Below, one piece after another: positions 1 through 6,446 of a stretch of DNA of 64,000 nt. The position numbers and the translations under genes are program-made. Within the stretch, counting starts at the first letter, position 1. Every line of letters starts with the position of its first letter. The stretch comes from an uncultured Roseobacter sp. (lineage in GTDB: Bacteria > Pseudomonadota > Alphaproteobacteria > Rhodobacterales > Rhodobacteraceae), in assembly GCF_947495275.1 (NCBI RefSeq), contig NZ_CANLYL010000004.1, forward strand, positions 186,001 through 250,000, read 5' to 3'. The notes under the pieces are model-generated. The model made no database searches. It was not told the DNA's origin and saw only the letters and a list, made by a program, of their open reading frames with translations.

Positions 1-81
1 GCGCATTGGCGAAACCACATTGCGTTTCGTGGCGTTGTGCGGATCGGATTTCAAGTGGGATATGGCAAATGGCAGCGATGA
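1..81 (+). CDS. 3' end of an unidentified gene
   Basis: Frame 1 is open from the first base and ends in TGA at 79-81. That stop overlaps the phosphatase ATG at 78 as ATGA, the same coupling seen at many junctions here. The 26 visible residues end in YGKWQR and are too few to identify the protein. The overlap suggests it is the upstream member of the operon. It could be a chance open frame. Confidence 0.45.
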   Translation, partial: AHWRNHIAFRGVVRIGFQVGYGKWQR

Positions 82-920
82 CACCGTCCTTTGATTTTGA
101 TGCCTCCTCTGCGCTGAGCATGGGGCAACGCAGCTATCAGGAAGATGCCCTCATCTGCGATTTTTCGCGCGGAGCGGAGATCGGGTTGACGGTGTTGGCG
201 GATGGCATGGGCGGGCACGCCGCGGGCGATGTGGCCAGCAAGATCGTCGTGACCGAGGTTTTCAGTGAGCTGACATTCCAACGCGGCAACGAGGCGTTCG
301 AAGAGACGGTCAGAACAAATCTCTTTGACGCGGCAATGGCGGCAAATGCCTGTCTGCGCGATCACATGGAAACGCACCCCGAGACACGGGGCATGGGGGC
401 CACACTGGTTGCGACGGTCATCATCAACAAGCGCCTGTACTGGATATCAATCGGGGATTCCCCCCTGTTTCTCTACCGGAATGGAAGCTTGAAACAGCTT
501 AACGAAGACCACTCCATGGCACCTCAGATTGATTTCATGGTCAAATCCGGCTTGATAGATCATGAAGAGGGGCGCTGCCACCCGGACCGAAACACCCTGA
601 CATCGGTGCTTTTCGGCGAGAAGGTGCCGCTTGTGGACTGCCCGCAGGAGCCAACCGATTTACAGGTGGGCGACATGCTGATCGTTGCCAGTGACGGGCT
701 GCAATTCCTGACGGATGCGGAGATCGAAGAGGTGCTGCGCTTGCATGAAGATGATCATAGCGCCAAGATCGCAGATCGACTGTTGGACCGGCTTGCGAAA
801 CTGAACGATCCGGATCTGGACAACGTGTCCTTTTCAGTTGTGAAACTCAAGGAAGCACAGAACCAAAACGTGACCGATGCCAAGCCAGCGGTACGGGAAG
901 GCATTCGCCGTGTCGGATGA
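78..920 (+). CDS. PP2C-type (PPM family) serine/threonine phosphatase
   Basis: The protein (280 aa) is a soluble metal-dependent phosphatase that should remove phosphate from Ser/Thr residues of partner proteins. PPM motifs occur in order: RSYQED (18-23), ADGMGGHAAGD (41-51), GMGATL and GDSP near the middle, ASDGL, and DNVSF near the C-terminus. The metal-binding aspartates are therefore present. Longer starts exist at 6 and 69, but ATG 78 forms an ATGA overlap with the upstream reading frame and begins just before the conserved domain. No signal peptide or membrane segment is visible. It opens a same-strand run with three GTPase-like genes. PP2C enzymes usually oppose a Hanks-type kinase; none is visible, and it could lie upstream of the window. 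Confidence 0.88.
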   Translation: MTPSFDFDASSALSMGQRSYQEDALICDFSRGAEIGLTVLADGMGGHAAGDVASKIVVTEVFSELTFQRGNEAFEETVRTNLFDAAMAANACLRDHMETHPETRGMGATLVATVIINKRLYWISIGDSPLFLYRNGSLKQLNEDHSMAPQIDFMVKSGLIDHEEGRCHPDRNTLTSVLFGEKVPLVDCPQEPTDLQVGDMLIVASDGLQFLTDAEIEEVLRLHEDDHSAKIADRLLDRLAKLNDPDLDNVSFSVVKLKEAQNQNVTDAKPAVREGIRRVG

Positions 921-2001
921 GGTCGAGCGCGTTCAGGTGATGTCAAGGTTGGAGGCTGTGTTGGCGTCCGAGACCTTGAGCGATGCCGCGAAAGCACAGG
1001 CGAAAAACCTGCTGGACCGTTTGGGGTCAGGCGTGAATGTCGTCGTTCTTGGCCCTAAGGGCGCTGGGAAATCAAGGCTTTGCGATGTGATGCTGGAGCA
1101 TGCATTGCCAGAACCCGGGCAAAAAGCCTCGGTCTACAGTTTTGACGATGTTCAGACCGATCCGGATGAGAGCGTCGCGTCGCTTTGCCTGCAATGTGAT
1201 TTTCTCAAGCTGACCACGGTGACGGATGTCACGGCACCACAGGACATGGATGATTTTGCGGCAACGGCCGCTTGGGCGATGTCACGAGCGGATATCGTTT
1301 TGTGGTGTACCTCGGAATTTGGCCCCACCGAGGCGAAAATCTGGGCGGATGCCTCGGATCACCTGAAAGACCACAGCTTCCTGGTGCTCACCAAAGCCGA
1401 CAGATTGGCCGGTCAAGGACAACTAAACCACGTGATTTCAGCGCTGCAATATATTGCAGCGGAAGAATTTCACAGCTTCTTTCCGACCTCTACATTGCAG
1501 GCACATGCGACATTGACGCAAACGGGCGGCATCCCTGATGACCAGATGGCCGCAAGTGGGATCAAAGCTCTTAAAGATACGTTGTTGCGACTGGCCATGT
1601 CTGGTCGGCGTGCGGATCTGGACAGCGCACTTTTGTTTTTGGAACGTTACGGGGCCGATACGTCTGCTCCTGAGACCGCGAAGGATGAGGCCTCTTCACC
1701 GCAAAGACAGACCTATCAGAAGGCACTGGACCTGTTACGGTCCCGCACAGCCGACATCAGTCAGGATGCGGCACCTGATACGGTCCTGAACTGCTGTGGT
1801 GCACTGGCCGAAGACCTCGCCGAACTTGCTTCAGCCGAAACACAAAGCGCGCCTGATTTTGACGCTTGGCGCAATGATCTTTACGAGGCCAGCGACAAGG
1901 TCATGCTGATGACGTTGGAAAACGATCTGCGGTCCGCCGCGGATGCCGCCACCATTATTTTGCAATTGAGCCGGGATCTGCAATCTCGCGTAAGTCATTA
2001 A
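910..2001 (+). CDS. P-loop GTPase-like protein
   Basis: From GTG 910 the protein has 363 aa; ATG 942 and ATG 877 are alternatives. GTG 910 is preferred because it overlaps the phosphatase stop. A Walker A motif GPKGAGKS lies at 48-55. A G4-like TKAD lies at 161-164, inside a block (ADIVLWC, then HSFLVLTKAD) that resembles the small GTPase at 4247. The DxxG switch is not clear, so hydrolysis may be altered. The C-terminal half (from about 190) is probably helical and without recognised motifs. No membrane segment is seen. A regulatory NTPase acting with the dynamin-like neighbour is an inference; the exact family is uncertain. Confidence 0.7.
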   Translation: MSDEVERVQVMSRLEAVLASETLSDAAKAQAKNLLDRLGSGVNVVVLGPKGAGKSRLCDVMLEHALPEPGQKASVYSFDDVQTDPDESVASLCLQCDFLKLTTVTDVTAPQDMDDFAATAAWAMSRADIVLWCTSEFGPTEAKIWADASDHLKDHSFLVLTKADRLAGQGQLNHVISALQYIAAEEFHSFFPTSTLQAHATLTQTGGIPDDQMAASGIKALKDTLLRLAMSGRRADLDSALLFLERYGADTSAPETAKDEASSPQRQTYQKALDLLRSRTADISQDAAPDTVLNCCGALAEDLAELASAETQSAPDFDAWRNDLYEASDKVMLMTLENDLRSAADAATIILQLSRDLQSRVSH

Positions 2002-2021
2002 AAGCTTAAAGATACTCAGTA

Positions 2022-2096
2022 TTTGAGCCCGCCGACGGCCACAATCACTGCACATTTGCCCCGCACATTCGGATGAGAATACATCCGGGGCTCAAA
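2022..2096. repeat. Nested inverted repeats before the dynamin-like gene
   Basis: TTTGAGCCC (2022-2030) is matched by GGGCTCAAA (2088-2096). A smaller hairpin, CGGATG (2070-2075) with CATCCG (2082-2087), abuts the right arm. Together they could fold into a two-level RNA structure in the 170-base gap between genes, or mark a regulator site. No T-tract follows, so a simple terminator is unlikely. Confidence 0.35.
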
Positions 2097-2171
2097 ACCT
2101 ATGCCATTTTTTCTGATACCCATAGAGACCGCCCAATCAGGCAGGCAGACGGCTTGCACAGGAGGGCAGCG

Positions 2172-4250
2172 ATGAACGTCCTCAATTCGGCGAGCACCCA
2201 GGCGTTCCAGGAAGCGACAAGGGCCGATCTGCTAAAGGTAGGTCTTGAGCCCCTCGAAGCGTTTGGGAAGACCGCAGCCGCGGTGCGTAAGGCGCTGAAA
2301 TCCTTGCAATCTCTGGGAGACGACAATACCGCAAAGCGTGCTGATCGTTTGCTGCGCCAACTTGATAGCTTCGAGCCAAGCGTCACAATGATCGGCCAGA
2401 TCAAATCCGGCAAAACCTCTCTGGTCAACGCCGTGGTCGGTCGGACAGATTTATTGCCAGCGGATGTAAATCCCTGGACGTCGGTCGTGACCTCTTTGCA
2501 CCTTCATCCGCAAGCTGCGGGCTTCAAGGACAGCGCGTCGTTTCAGTTTTTCGACGAAGATGAATGGGATCGCCTGATTTCCGGCGGGGGGCGCATTGGT
2601 GAGCTGGCCAGTCGCGCAGGGGCCGATGATGAACTGGAAAAGATCAAGGCGCAGGCCGCCGAAATGCGCGAGAAATCACGTGTTCGTCTGGGCCGGAAAT
2701 TTGAGATGTTGCTTGGCCAGCAGCGTGACTATGGCTATTTCGATAAGGACCTGATTGAACGATATGTCTGCCTCGGCGAAGAGCCTGACGCGGAAGATCC
2801 TGACATCTCCGAAGAACAGGGGCGTTTCGCGGATATCACCAAGTCGGCAGATTTGAACATGCAGCGCGCGTCACTGCCGATCCGTTTGTGTCTTCGCGAC
2901 ACGCCGGGTGTGAACGATACCTTCATGATGCGCGAGCAAATCACCATTCGTTCGATCCGTGACAGCCGCATCTGTGTCGTCGTTCTGTCTGCGCACCAGG
3001 CGCTCTCTTCAACAGACCTCGCCCTTATTCGTCTGATATCAAACGTCAAATCCCGCGATGTCGTGATCTTCGTCAATCGGGTGGACGAGTTGTCTGATCC
3101 CAAGAACCAGATCCCGCAGATATCCCAGAGTATCGCTGAGACGCTTGCGCGCCACAAAGGACCGGAGGATGCCGAGATTCTCTTCGGCAGTGCGATGTGG
3201 GCGGCTTGTGCTCTGGAAGGAAAACTGGACGCGCTGCCTGCGTCAAGCGCCCAGGCGTTGCTTGAGTGGTCTGAGGCCGCGGACGTCAGCGATGTCATTG
3301 ACGAGGTGGAGAGCCGCGATCCGACCAAGATGGCATGGGCCTTATCCGGCGTCCCATCGCTGCAGAGAGCTCTCGCCACACGCATCGCGGAGGGCATTGG
3401 GCAAGTCACATTGCAGCGCGTCGCATCCAGCGGGTTAAATCTGGCCAATGCTATATCCGCAGCAGAGCGGATCACGCAAACAAGCGCGAGAACCGCAGAT
3501 GGCCAGCGCCTTGAACGCGGTGACGCGATCAATCGGATGGCCGAAATTACAACCTCGCAACTCGATAAGCTTGATGACACCTATGCGGCCATCGTGGCGG
3601 AATTTTCGGAGCGGATGGATCGCGTACAAGCCAGCTTCCTGGAACGGGCGACCGCCTCACTGATCGTGCATCTTGAGAAATTCGGCGATCATGAACCATG
3701 GACCTATGATCCGGCCGGGTTGCGGATGCTTCTTGGGTCGTCTCACAAGGTTCTGGCGCGCAAAAGCAAGGCAGCCTTCGAGGCGACGACACAAGAAACC
3801 GCGTTGGAATTGAGTCAGCTTTACCAACAGGCTTTTGGTTTGCCGCCTGAACTTACGCGGATTTCACTGCCACAGGCGCCACAGGTTCCGCCACCCGTTT
3901 CGCTGGGCCGAACCATCGCGCTCGATCTCAATGGCAGCTGGTGGAAACGCTGGTGGCTGCATCGGCGCGGCTACAAAGCCTATGCATCTAACTTCTATGA
4001 GTTGATCAAGACCGAGACCAATCCCTTTGTCGACGAACTCCGCGATGATCTTGCACAGGAAGTCCGCAAGACGGCCGCAGAAGCGTTGGACACGTTTCTG
4101 GCCGAACAAAAATCGGTGTTTGATGTGTTTGACAAGCTGGCGCAATCGAGCCCGCAGGAACTTCAGGCTTACGTGGCCAAGAATGCGCCACCTGATCGTC
4201 AGGGAATGCTGACAAAAGCTATAGAAACACTGAGTGAGTATGCATCATGA
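2172..4250 (+). CDS. Dynamin-like large GTPase
   Basis: The 692-aa protein begins at ATG 2172, six bases after AGGAGG at 2160-2165; an in-frame ATG at 2073 lacks such a site. GTPase motifs are clear: G1 GQIKSGKTS (75-83), a likely G2 threonine near 103 (PWTSVVTSL), G3 DTPGVND (243-249) and G4 NRVDEL (302-307). A long helical region follows, and a Trp/Arg-rich patch (WWKRWWLHRRGY, near 595) may touch membranes. Bacterial dynamins remodel or guard membranes after GTP-dependent assembly; that role is inferred here. It is flanked by two smaller GTPase-like proteins, unlike the usual tandem of two full dynamins. It overlaps the next gene by ATGA, implying coupled translation. Confidence 0.82.
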   Translation: MNVLNSASTQAFQEATRADLLKVGLEPLEAFGKTAAAVRKALKSLQSLGDDNTAKRADRLLRQLDSFEPSVTMIGQIKSGKTSLVNAVVGRTDLLPADVNPWTSVVTSLHLHPQAAGFKDSASFQFFDEDEWDRLISGGGRIGELASRAGADDELEKIKAQAAEMREKSRVRLGRKFEMLLGQQRDYGYFDKDLIERYVCLGEEPDAEDPDISEEQGRFADITKSADLNMQRASLPIRLCLRDTPGVNDTFMMREQITIRSIRDSRICVVVLSAHQALSSTDLALIRLISNVKSRDVVIFVNRVDELSDPKNQIPQISQSIAETLARHKGPEDAEILFGSAMWAACALEGKLDALPASSAQALLEWSEAADVSDVIDEVESRDPTKMAWALSGVPSLQRALATRIAEGIGQVTLQRVASSGLNLANAISAAERITQTSARTADGQRLERGDAINRMAEITTSQLDKLDDTYAAIVAEFSERMDRVQASFLERATASLIVHLEKFGDHEPWTYDPAGLRMLLGSSHKVLARKSKAAFEATTQETALELSQLYQQAFGLPPELTRISLPQAPQVPPPVSLGRTIALDLNGSWWKRWWLHRRGYKAYASNFYELIKTETNPFVDELRDDLAQEVRKTAAEALDTFLAEQKSVFDVFDKLAQSSPQELQAYVAKNAPPDRQGMLTKAIETLSEYAS

Positions 4251-5179
4251 CGCTCGACACCCCCCCTCAAGATGAGCCTGCTTTTCTGAAAGGCGTGAAG
4301 GGGCCGCGCCGCCCGCGGATCGCCCTGATGGGAGAATTCAGCGCCGGAAAGAGTACCCTTGCCAACCTGATGATTGGGTCAGACCCCTTGCCGGTGCAGG
4401 TCATTGCCACCCAACTGCCGCCGGTGTGGATCAGCTATGGTTCGGGTCCGGCGGCCATCGTGGATCTGGAGGGAAACGAGACCCCGTGCGAGCTTGAAGC
4501 GTTGCAGGAAATATCAACCGAAGAAACGGCGTTCATCCGGGTGCAGTGTAAGGAAGAGATACTGCGGATGTGCGATATTATCGACATGCCGGGTATTTCT
4601 GATCCGAATATGGCGTCCGCCGTTTGGGAACGCATTTTGCCTTTGGCTGATGGGGTTATCTGGTGCAGCCCGGCCACCCAGGCCTGGCGTCAGAGCGAGG
4701 CGTCAGTTTGGGAAAACGTGCCAAAACATATCCAGGAGCACTCCCTTTTATTGCTGACGCGCGGAGACATGTTGGTGTCGGAAAAAGATCGCCGCAAAGT
4801 GCTCAAACGCGTGCGCTCAGAAACCGACGCGTTGTTTGCTGCATCAATGATGATCTCGTTGACCCAGGCACGCGATGCCGAAGATGATCCCGCGATTTGG
4901 GAAGAAAGTGGCGCAGAGCCATTCGTCACCGAGTTTCTGAACACAATCAACAGGATAGCAGATCAGATTGAAGATGGCAGCCCGCTGGAACCTTTCAAGA
5001 CCTTGAACTGTGAACCGCAAGCTCTGGTGGAAAATGAAGCTTCCTCTGCTTCGGTGGCCCATGAGGAAACGGGCGACAGGATTGTGCCGCGCCGCCCCAT
5101 TGCCAAATCGCGCAGGGAGCGGCCGACGCCGCGACCTCAGCCTGAGGAAGATCTGGACCTGAGCCCCAAATTCTCCTGA
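4247..5179 (+). CDS. Small dynamin-type GTPase
   Basis: The 310-aa protein starts at ATG 4247, overlapping the dynamin stop by four bases. It has G1 GEFSAGKST (29-37), a candidate G2 Thr55 (IATQLPPVW), G3 DMPGISD (113-119) and a G4-like TRGD (171-174). The block ADGVIWC then HSLLLLTRGD resembles the GTPase-like protein at 910, suggesting the two are paralogues flanking the dynamin. The C-terminal 60 residues are basic and proline-rich (RPIAKSRRERPTPRPQPEED) and probably disordered, perhaps a tether. Function within the cluster is unknown. Confidence 0.75.
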   Translation: MTLDTPPQDEPAFLKGVKGPRRPRIALMGEFSAGKSTLANLMIGSDPLPVQVIATQLPPVWISYGSGPAAIVDLEGNETPCELEALQEISTEETAFIRVQCKEEILRMCDIIDMPGISDPNMASAVWERILPLADGVIWCSPATQAWRQSEASVWENVPKHIQEHSLLLLTRGDMLVSEKDRRKVLKRVRSETDALFAASMMISLTQARDAEDDPAIWEESGAEPFVTEFLNTINRIADQIEDGSPLEPFKTLNCEPQALVENEASSASVAHEETGDRIVPRRPIAKSRRERPTPRPQPEEDLDLSPKFS

Positions 5180-5261
5180 TTTCGTTAACCGGAATCACAT
5201 TTTCTGCGGTTATGCCAAACACACTCTGAAAAGGCAGAATGCGTGTGTGTGACCGGCAAAG

Positions 5262-5654
5262 ATGAATAGTTTGTCAGTGAAAGATCGGCTGGACAGTTTC
5301 CGCAACCGGTTTGCGGGGTGCAGTGTTGTGGTCTTTGCCGATGTCTCCACCGGTATGGTGCTGTCCGCCAGTAGCCGCGAACGAACCACACAGGAAAAGC
5401 TGGATGATCTGTGTCGCCGCGCGGCCTCCCGTCTTGCCGCAGGGGCTCATGCGGGCGTGTCCAACAGGTTTTTCGGTGCTAACGGTCTTACCCCCAGCTT
5501 AATCGAATTTGACGCGGCGCAAAGGTTTTGCATCGTCAGGTCCAATCATGCGGACGAAGAGGCCTTGTGCTTTCTTCACGACGGTCCAGAACCGGTTTCC
5601 GAGATGTTGGCGGTCGCATCTGAGCTGCTTTCAGACATCGGGGCGGAGGGCTGA
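5262..5654 (+). CDS. Small protein, possibly Roadblock/LC7-like
   Basis: The 130-aa protein has an alternating strand-helix pattern (GCSVVVFADVSTGMVLSASS at 19-38, then helices and a late strand FCIVRS), which resembles Roadblock/LC7 domains. That assignment is by eye and weak. LC7 proteins often act as partners or activators of small GTPases (as MglB does for MglA), which would suit this neighbourhood. The start ATG 5262 has only a poor ribosome site. It ends four bases before the next gene. No signal peptide or membrane segment is seen. Confidence 0.5.
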   Translation: MNSLSVKDRLDSFRNRFAGCSVVVFADVSTGMVLSASSRERTTQEKLDDLCRRAASRLAAGAHAGVSNRFFGANGLTPSLIEFDAAQRFCIVRSNHADEEALCFLHDGPEPVSEMLAVASELLSDIGAEG

Positions 5655-5657
5655 ACC

Positions 5658-6446
5658 ATGCCCGATGGTCGAACGGAGGACGCGGAACGTCTTTGCAAAG
5701 TGTTGTCCAGTCTGCGCAATATCGAACATGGTTTTTCTGCGCGCGGCAGACCTCTTGCCAAGGAGGATGCTGCGCAAAGGTTAAGAGCAATCTTGCAGGA
5801 AATTGATGAAACGGTGTTGCGCCGCCACTTACGCTTCACAAATGATCGCGTCGGAGACCTGGTTCTTGATGTAGCGGAAAGACGGCTCTTTGGGGTGTCG
5901 GTTGGGAAAGATGTCCGTTTGGAGAAGGGTGACGGGATAGCAGAAACACAAATCTCCATTGACGATCCCGCGAGTGTCGCCGGGGTTCTACAAGGCTTCT
6001 GCGCTGAGGCTGATAGCGTTTACGTTCAAACAGAAATCGCGCAGAGCGCCTTGCCGGAAGGGGTGATGGGGCTGTCGGCAGCCGATTTGTCCGCCCAGCT
6101 TTTTGAAGGATCAGGCAAGGCGATGCCATCGGTGACCCTTGAGACCGCCATCGCGGACTGTCGGATTTTTGCCCTGGCGATTTTCGACAGTGACGCTGCC
6201 GAGGGCGCGGCAATAATTGGGCAGACCGCCCTTGGGATGGAACTACAGGCACTGGATACTGAGCATGGGTCTGGCAAGGTCATCGATGAACAATCGAGCC
6301 CGGACCATTGTGTCATTTGGGCGCGCGCGGACGCGCAAATGCCGGCCATCCTGAAAGTTCACCACAACGGGCGCCATCTATGGGTTGCTTTTGAGGCTGA
6401 CCAACTGGATGCCTGCATTGAATGTTGGTCGGCAATCTTCGCTTAG
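5658..6446 (+). CDS. Uncharacterised protein at the end of the GTPase cluster
   Basis: I do not recognise this 262-aa protein. It starts at ATG 5658 behind GGAGGG and lies three bases after the preceding stop, so it belongs to the same transcript. It is soluble-looking and acidic, with a helical N-terminal third and mixed alpha/beta pattern afterwards (VGDLVLDVAERRLFGV near 65-80, ILKVHHNGRHLWVAFEAD near the C-terminus). No catalytic motif stands out. It could be an effector, adaptor or regulator for the GTPases. Confidence 0.55.
   Translation: MPDGRTEDAERLCKVLSSLRNIEHGFSARGRPLAKEDAAQRLRAILQEIDETVLRRHLRFTNDRVGDLVLDVAERRLFGVSVGKDVRLEKGDGIAETQISIDDPASVAGVLQGFCAEADSVYVQTEIAQSALPEGVMGLSAADLSAQLFEGSGKAMPSVTLETAIADCRIFALAIFDSDAAEGAAIIGQTALGMELQALDTEHGSGKVIDEQSSPDHCVIWARADAQMPAILKVHHNGRHLWVAFEADQLDACIECWSAIFA

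What the first reader, a model, noticed from the sequence alone, without database searches (positions are those of the whole stretch)
78..6446. Candidate undescribed phosphatase-GTPase-dynamin system
Six consecutive same-strand genes encode a PP2C phosphatase, a GTPase-like P-loop protein, a dynamin-like GTPase, a second small GTPase, a possible Roadblock/LC7-like protein and an unknown protein. Motifs for the phosphatase, the dynamin and the second GTPase are explicit, and most junctions overlap or lie within a few bases. PP2C suggests phosphorylation control, and an LC7-like partner suggests GTPase activation or scaffolding. Together they could form a membrane-remodelling or stress/defence machine. 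I know no named system with this composition.
Basis: partly seen in the sequence, partly recalled or inferred. Interest (0 to 1): 0.72.

Follow-up and report, generated by a model that had tools for sequence, protein, structure and literature searches.

The report
Kinase-controlled dynamin pair with hidden roadblocks
Marine Roseobacter-group bacteria carry a conserved eight-gene set that joins a dynamin-like membrane GTPase and its partner to a protein kinase switch and to a regulator of a kind that governs GTPases in myxobacteria and in our own lysosomes; it looks like a new, testable kind of bacterial membrane machine, but its task is unknown.

Summary
The finding is real but larger than reported. 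The six window genes are the downstream part of an eight-gene block: Hanks kinase – FHA – PP2C – degenerate GTPase (G1) – dynamin-like protein – small dynamin-type GTPase (G2) – LC7-like protein – unknown. Of 82 related loci read, 63 hold exactly this order; 11 of the other 19 run into a contig end. Neighbouring genes mostly differ, and all components co-vary with the dynamin (r 0.79–0.91; no housekeeping control). Dynamin and G2 best match the two chains of the Campylobacter Cj-DLP1/Cj-DLP2 complex. G1 is a G2 paralogue without switch II (DxxG 2 of 83, against 82 of 83 in G2). The small protein has a Roadblock/LC7 fold although 0 of 68 members hit the Pfam family; the unknown protein may be longin/roadblock-like, weakly. 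The block is seen only in one family (Rhodobacteraceae in the broad sense), is often absent, occurs on plasmids and is not T6SS-linked. Most likely it is a phosphorylation-switched, roadblock-regulated dynamin pair that remodels membrane. The process is unknown; I found no paper on it in ten searches whose lists were mostly capped.

The parts
1..94 (+). 3' end of the FHA-domain protein, which starts upstream of the window (L002:18952, about -1048). Before it, wholly outside the window, lies the Hanks-type Ser/Thr kinase (L002:17153-18859, about -2847 to -1141, start by comparison with homologues); its own copy has a hydrophobic C-terminal stretch that 14 of 73 homologues share
   Evidence: Pfam FHA over cut-off in 3 of 4 homologues; a Leisingera plasmid record names its homologue FHA; kinase: Pkinase 2.9e-28, HRDxxPDN in 72 of 73 homologues, alignment of 23, hydrophobicity scan
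78..920 (+). PP2C-type phosphatase
   Evidence: PP2C_2 6.1e-12; Stp1/IreP-type model 6.7e-44, below its cut-off
877..2001 (+). G1: degenerate GTPase, paralogue of G2, P-loop mostly kept and switch II lost
   Evidence: hhalign to G2 prob 99.8, E 2.1e-29; P-loop 71 of 83, DxxG 2 of 83, 9 rows gapped there; best PDB match 5owv chain C 1.2e-8
2002..2171 (+). intergenic gap with DNA conserved among Roseobacter relatives (possible internal promoter or regulator site)
2172..4250 (+). dynamin-like protein (DLP1-type); conserved WWxxWW motif in the C-terminal half; listed ORF starts at 2073
   Evidence: Dynamin_N 1.5e-12; 5owv chain A 1e-10, 2j68 5.2e-9; G1, G3, G4 motifs 84 of 84 each, WWxxWW 82 of 84
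4247..5179 (+). G2: dynamin-type partner GTPase, G domain plus low-conservation tail, too short for a long helical trunk
   Evidence: Dynamin_N 5.2e-12; 5owv chain C 4.7e-19; P-loop and DxxG 82 of 83 each
5180..5261 (+). second recurrent gap with DNA conserved among Roseobacter relatives
5262..5654 (+). Roadblock/LC7-fold protein
   Evidence: AlphaFold2 pLDDT 78.9, pTM 0.73; 77 Foldseek matches at E 0.001 or less, the 50 shown are Roadblock/LC7-type entries, best 7.2e-6
5658..6446 (+). unknown protein, possibly two longin/roadblock-like domains
   Evidence: AlphaFold2 pLDDT 87.4, pTM 0.67; Foldseek Mon1-Ccz1 3e-3 and local MglB/Lamtor matches E 0.03-0.1, mixed with unrelated folds, none at 0.001 or less

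Best explanation
The eight genes encode one phosphorylation-switched, roadblock-regulated dynamin machine. The dynamin-like protein and G2 are a heterotypic pair like Cj-DLP1/Cj-DLP2: they assemble with GTP on the cytoplasmic face of a membrane, possibly anchored through the conserved WWxxWW segment, and tether or remodel it. G1, a G2 paralogue that mostly keeps the P-loop but has lost switch II, is a non-cycling partner that may cap or hold the dynamin inactive. The LC7 protein, perhaps with the longin-like protein, is a regulator (GAP, GEF or scaffold) of G2 or G1, as MglB is to MglA and Ragulator to the Rags. The Hanks kinase, PP2C phosphatase and FHA adaptor set when it assembles: the kinase phosphorylates a threonine on an assembly component, FHA docks there, PP2C resets. 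Shown: gene content, order, co-inheritance, motif states, LC7 fold, Cj-DLP homology. Inferred: all interactions, membrane action, direction of regulation. The process served is unknown; envelope or membrane maintenance under stress is my first guess.
For: Exact eight-gene order in 63 of 82 loci; LC7 found in 79 and unknown in 78 of 82; mostly different neighbours; co-variation with dynamin r 0.79-0.91 over 69 loci, 0 of 500 permutations reach it for each component. Dynamin best matches 5owv chain A and G2 best matches chain C; a dynamin is directly followed by a GTPase gene in 67 of 81 loci. DxxG 82 of 83 in G2, 84 of 84 in dynamin, 2 of 83 in G1. LC7 fold. Kinase motifs in 72 of 73 and PP2C motif in 78 of 79. 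Subtypes in other genera keep dynamin-GTPase plus LC7-unknown with other modules.
Against: No experiment or expression data. G2 (median 310 aa) lacks the length of Cj-DLP2 (614 aa in 5owv chain C), so the Cj tetramer geometry cannot be copied. The unknown protein's fold match is weak and its list also holds unrelated folds (factor B protease, PCNA, phytochromes); LC7 and unknown profiles do not match each other. No phospho-target is known. Only 14 of 73 kinases have a clear hydrophobic C-terminal stretch, so a membrane-anchored kinase is not a conserved feature. In 14 of 81 loci no dynamin is directly followed by a called GTPase gene. Co-variation may reflect shared descent alone; no housekeeping gene was compared. 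The 82 loci were picked by the dynamin's own peptides and cut at the best 80, and the profiles used to read them were built partly from the same genomes.
Confidence: 0.55

Rival explanations
1. Anti-phage defence: a dynamin pair that damages or seals membranes on infection, held in check by the kinase/phosphatase module, akin to Eleos (LeoA/LeoBC) or kinase-based systems.
For: Patchy carriage, 77 of 295 family genomes; plasmid copies; different neighbours; PADLOC matches: dynamin to LeoA 3.1e-9 and LeoBC 4.6e-6, kinase to PD-T4-6 models (best 1.9e-39) and mad6 3.3e-36, the kinase matches being of the kind any Hanks kinase may give (NCBIfam MAD6 121 bits against a cut-off of 460); fast-changing LC7 and unknown proteins, mean identity 33% and 22% against 51%.
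Against: No NCBIfam defence model passed. Among 95 flanking proteins no PADLOC family matched more than 3 at 1e-20; 22 of the 25 families shown are PD-T4-6 models, and the three kinase-like members are this block's own kinases that my gene finder had left outside. No control set was scanned.
Confidence: 0.2
2. A signalling switch without membrane remodelling: the GTPases are read-outs for the phospho-module, in the manner of actinobacterial conservons or MglA/MglB polarity control.
For: LC7 fold next to GTPases as in conservons; motif-poor G1; kinase-FHA-PP2C triad.
Against: The central protein is a full-length dynamin-like protein with strict motifs and a conserved WWxxWW segment, not a Ras-like GTPase.
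Confidence: 0.18
3. A control module for another machine (T6SS-like threonine phosphorylation pathway) encoded elsewhere.
For: Kinase-FHA-PP2C resembles PpkA-Fha-PppA (recalled).
Against: T6SS_VasE family (PF05936; TssK by recall) absent from the own genome; present in 10 of 30 carriers and 3 of 14 genomes without the dynamin, chosen from the lists.
Confidence: 0.05

Closest known systems
Campylobacter jejuni Cj-DLP1/Cj-DLP2 pair (5OWV; PMC6104087, passages read)
   Same: Side-by-side genes; dynamin profile hits chain A first, G2 and G1 profiles hit chain C first
   Different: G2 is about half the length of Cj-DLP2; [quoted passage not shown]
Actinobacterial conservons / AGPS (PMC13343842, abstract read)
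   Same: Operon joining a kinase, an MglB-type roadblock protein, a protein of unknown function and a GTPase
   Different: Histidine kinase-like CvnA and Ras-like CvnD there; Hanks kinase, PP2C, FHA and dynamin pair here
MglA/MglB (M. xanthus) and Ragulator
   Same: LC7 fold of the small protein
   Different: Partner would be a dynamin-type GTPase; no member hits Pfam's roadblock family
T6SS threonine phosphorylation pathway PpkA-PppA-Fha (recalled)
   Same: Kinase, PP2C and FHA together
   Different: No T6SS_VasE gene in the own genome and no association in the 44 genomes tested
Eleos / LeoABC (E. coli; PADLOC)
   Same: Dynamin-like proteins encoded together; weak LeoA and LeoBC model matches
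   Different: Best match only 3.1e-9; kinase, FHA, PP2C and LC7 are not known to me as parts of it (recalled; LeoA paper PMC4159319 seen as a listing only)

Membership tests
Bacterial dynamin-like pair | Dynamin GTPase motifs G1, G3, G4 in the large protein | tested here: met
   84 of 84 for each motif; Dynamin_N over cut-off
Bacterial dynamin-like pair | Second DLP encoded side by side | tested here: met
   67 of 81 loci directly adjacent; G2 Dynamin_N over cut-off, 5owv_C 4.7e-19
Bacterial dynamin-like pair | Both partners carry a long helical trunk (as in Cj-DLP2) | tested here: not met
   By length only: G2 median 310 aa, conserved part ends near residue 230, against 614 aa in 5owv_C
Bacterial dynamin-like pair | Membrane binding and GTP-driven assembly | not testable with these tools
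   needs biochemistry
Roadblock/LC7 fold (small protein) | alpha-beta-beta-alpha-beta-beta-beta-alpha fold matching solved LC7 proteins | tested here: met
Roadblock/LC7 family by sequence | Match to the Pfam roadblock model | tested here: not met
   0 of 68 members at E 0.1
Longin/roadblock fold (unknown protein) | Confident structural match | tested here: inconclusive
   best Foldseek E 3e-3 with TM about 0.2, none at 0.001 or less, mixed list
T6SS phosphorylation pathway | T6SS present in the same genome | tested here: not met
   PF05936 absent in G000; 10 of 30 carriers have it
Eleos (LeoA/LeoBC) | PADLOC component models matched strongly | tested here: not met
   LeoA 3.1e-9 and LeoBC 4.6e-6 to the dynamin, LeoA 6.7e-6 and LeoBC 9.1e-4 to G2; no system-level caller was run
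Conservon (AGPS) | CvnA-type histidine kinase-like protein | tested here: not met
   kinase is Hanks type
Conservon (AGPS) | Ras-like CvnD GTPase | tested here: not met
   GTPases are dynamin type

The most novel reading that the evidence does not exclude
A bacterial counterpart of eukaryotic membrane-traffic control: a dynamin pair and a degenerate GTPase whose assembly is governed by an LC7/longin regulator and by threonine phosphorylation read by FHA. It would be the founding member of a Rhodobacteraceae family of modular dynamin systems in which the dynamin-GTPase and LC7-longin core is kept and the control module is swapped (kinase-FHA-PP2C; the same with solute-binding proteins; DSP phosphatase with ABC/AAA-like ATPase, globin-reductase and GFA protein).
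Probability: 0.35. Interest if true: 0.85.

Novelty: new variant of a known kind. Interest (0 to 1): 0.62.

Why it matters
Bacterial dynamins are known mostly as bare pairs with few known regulators (recalled). Here one comes with a full phosphorylation circuit and with an LC7-fold protein that the sequence models tried do not see, in an ecologically important marine group with cultured strains. It makes testable whether roadblock proteins regulate dynamins in bacteria and how Hanks kinases might control membrane remodelling. The LC7 result also suggests that roadblock regulators are under-counted in bacterial genomes.

Tried and rejected
T6SS link: rejected. Phage origin: no match in 50,697 phage records. 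Defence island: not supported. Of 313 eligible flanking proteins I drew 140 at random and gave 95 of those 140, dropping 45 by hand without a fixed rule (some were plainly block genes); at 1e-20 no PADLOC family matched more than 3 of 95 (27 families, 25 shown). A later check showed that three of the 95 are this block's own kinases and one its own unknown protein. The same check shows that my gene finder sometimes cut the block short, so the neighbour counts (37 distinct of 45 upstream, 36 of 45 downstream) include some false neighbours.

Sequence link between LC7 and unknown proteins: none (hhalign probability 0.8%). Between this LC7 and the 118-aa family next to other dynamin pairs: none (0.6%), although that family looks roadblock-like by eye. 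PDB sequence search for LC7 and unknown: nothing meaningful. The kinase as a conserved membrane receptor: rejected; 14 of 73 have a clear hydrophobic C-terminal stretch (nine Roseobacter loci and five others). Long open frames for some dynamins looked like fusions, but the extra parts that I read (L086) look like GC-rich over-extension, so I do not claim fusions. An FHA motif pattern that I counted (4 of 77) was badly written and is discarded; FHA rests. The weak unknown-protein match in another family (G350, 1.1e-5) has no dynamin in that genome and none of the other block genes in the 20 kb around it; treated as chance. Of the dynamin matches I fetched 80 stretches, not all.
Full report
WHAT IS THERE. 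The six genes are real and on one strand. The window begins inside an operon-like block. Taking the upstream contig adds a Hanks kinase (Pkinase 2.9e-28) and an FHA protein, whose stop overlaps the PP2C start. The FHA domain is not detected by Pfam in the own copy, given cut at the window edge, but passes the cut-off in 3 of 4 homologues, and a Leisingera record names its homologue so. The block is therefore kinase–FHA–PP2C–G1–dynamin–G2–LC7–unknown, from about -2847 to 6446 in window coordinates. The dynamin most likely starts at 2172.

CONSERVATION. The dynamin is found in 77 of 295 genomes sampled from the family, nearly one per genus. I read 80 stretches around such matches plus the own locus. 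In 47 of these 81 a kinase, FHA or PP2C gene lies within five genes before the dynamin and a GTPase, LC7 or unknown gene within three after it. A second, named set (80 genome loci, plus 2 plasmid loci) shows the exact eight-gene order in 63 of 82; 11 of the other 19 run into a contig end within 250 bases of the block. The two sets overlap: at least 22 of the 80 named loci lie on contigs of the same length as contigs of the first set, and the profiles were built from the first set. The named set was found by the dynamin's own conserved peptides and cut at the best 80 of 499 relatives, so it favours near relatives; the other 419 I did not see. G266, of the own genus, shares a contig length with a record titled Roseobacter (L124), so the window is probably from a Roseobacter; the best dynamin match is R. 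insulae (79%). Immediate neighbours mostly differ: 37 distinct of 45 upstream, 36 of 45 downstream, some of these being errors of my gene finder. Across 69 loci with all eight families, every component's distance matrix follows that of the dynamin (r 0.79 to 0.91; 0 of 500 permutations reach it). This shows co-inheritance, not interaction, and no housekeeping gene was compared. Mean pairwise identity is highest for PP2C and dynamin (51%) and lowest for LC7 (33%) and unknown (22%), with G1 at 32%.

RANGE. In 385 genomes of the class, the own one included, the dynamin profile at 1e-40 hits 2, both in this family, and the unknown-protein profile hits 3, one of them a weak stray; few of those 385 are of the family. 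In 398 genomes of the phylum the G2 profile at 1e-25 hits 9, of which 8 (own included) are in the family; the ninth, in another family of the class, has a dynamin–G2 pair without the rest. So the pair is wider, and the block is so far seen only in this family. The dynamin is on 18 plasmid records (12 Leisingera, 5 Ruegeria, 1 Rhodobacter); of the two that I opened, the Leisingera one has the block and the Ruegeria one a subtype. No phage record matches.

THE GTPASES. Profiles against solved structures: the dynamin best matches 5owv chain A (1e-10) and then BDLP 2j68 (5.2e-9); G2 best matches 5owv chain C (4.7e-19); G1 also best matches chain C (1.2e-8), ahead of many other P-loop proteins. 5owv is the Cj-DLP1/Cj-DLP2 tetramer (PMC6104087, passages read; that the entry is this paper's structure is recalled). 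G1 and G2 are paralogues (hhalign 99.8%, 2.1e-29). Motif states: dynamin G1, G3 and G4 84 of 84 each; G2 P-loop and G3 82 of 83 each, G4 69 of 83; G1 P-loop 71 of 83, G3 2 of 83 (9 rows gapped there), G4 46 of 83. G1 is thus a degenerate GTPase. The dynamin's C-terminal half holds WWxxWW in 82 of 84; a membrane role for it is my inference.

THE TWO SMALL PROTEINS. LC7: the AlphaFold2 model (pLDDT 78.9, pTM 0.73) has the order alpha-beta-beta-alpha-beta-beta-beta-alpha. Foldseek finds 77 matches at 0.001 or less; the 50 shown are Roadblock/LC7, MglB, MP1-p14, Ragulator/LAMTOR and Asgard roadblock entries (for 5x6u, 5x6v and 8fw5 by recall of what the complex holds), best 7.2e-6. No member of 68 hits the Pfam roadblock family. 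Unknown: model pLDDT 87.4, pTM 0.67; its C-terminal half has the same order of elements. Foldseek gives Mon1–Ccz1 (3e-3, TM about 0.2) and local MglB and Lamtor matches (E 0.03 to 0.1), but also factor B protease, PCNA and phytochrome entries in the same range, and nothing at 0.001 or less. I treat it as possibly longin/roadblock-like, unproven.

SUBTYPES. Other loci in the family keep dynamin–GTPase, often with LC7–unknown, but change the rest: (a) Ruegeria type with two dynamin–GTPase pairs, kinase–FHA–PP2C and two solute-binding-type proteins; (b) DSP-type phosphatase, LC7, unknown, ABC/AAA-like ATPase (weak Pfam match), dynamin, GTPase, ferredoxin/flavin/globin reductase and GFA protein, not all present or on one strand at each of the four loci; (c) dynamin–GTPase, single or in tandem, with a different small protein of about 118 aa. 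This modularity suggests that the dynamin–GTPase and LC7–unknown core is the machine and the rest is control.

MECHANISM. See Best explanation. Shown: composition, order, co-inheritance, motif states, LC7 fold, homology to a membrane-tethering pair. Inferred: that dynamin and G2 bind each other, that LC7 and unknown regulate G2 or G1, that the phospho-module acts on this assembly, that the target is a membrane.

AGAINST. No experiment; G2 is too short for the Cj-DLP2 trunk; the unknown's fold is weak; only 14 of 73 kinases have a clear hydrophobic C-terminal stretch; the process served is unknown. Defence (about 0.2) and pure signalling (about 0.18) remain open. The kinase does match PADLOC's PD-T4-6 models (1.9e-39) and mad6 (3.3e-36), and the dynamin LeoA (3.1e-9); I read these as generic, since NCBIfam's MAD6 model is missed by far (121 bits against 460). 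T6SS control is disfavoured.

LITERATURE. Ten searches of the held library were used. I saw listings and the starts of abstracts only, and most lists were capped (for example 12 of 308 and 12 of 9,178). Read further: passages of PMC6104087 and the abstract of PMC13343842. I saw no paper describing this gene set; the library lacks most subscription papers, and one paper that I wanted was not held.

Noticed in passing
upstream of the window, about -8558 to -3097 (L002:11442-16903): IclR-type regulator and four enzymes directly upstream that read like the beta-hydroxyaspartate cycle cluster (bhcR, bhcABCD); names are recalled, not tested.
   Followed up: no
window 2002-2171 and 5180-5261, and the same gaps in L117-L127: Both recurrent gaps inside the block hold DNA conserved among Roseobacter relatives (around CACAATC and GTTAACC), a possible internal promoter or regulator site. 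CACAATC is in 11 of 68 G1-dynamin gaps and GTTAAC in 10 of 65 G2-LC7 gaps, over ten times as dense as elsewhere in the loci, so it is no family-wide motif.
   Followed up: partly
L088, L092, L105, L108: A different dynamin locus type with DSP-type phosphatase, LC7, unknown, ABC/AAA-like ATPase, ferredoxin-flavin-globin reductase and GFA protein, not all at every locus: possibly a redox- or NO-linked version.
   Followed up: partly
L041, L042, L043, L047, L049, L050: In these six loci (L042 lies on a contig of the same length as that of Silicimonas algicola, L134) the block sits directly before genes that read like mreB, mreC, mrdA and rodA (cell shape); names by eye, and it may be only a shared insertion place.
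   Followed up: no
L093, L094, L198: The kinase-FHA-PP2C module is followed by one or two solute-binding-type proteins (two in L198 and L093, one before the stretch ends in L094): possible sensors.
   Followed up: no
L215:5733-6119 and L059, L062, L086, L091, L098, L099, L103, L110, L113: A second small family of about 118 aa beside dynamin-GTPase genes looks roadblock-like by eye but has no Pfam match (two members tried) and no profile match to this LC7.
   Followed up: partly
L034 and L035 (G266); L066 and L067 (G128): Some genomes carry two separate copies of the block on different contigs; in three of these four loci one or two of the small block genes were not called.
   Followed up: no
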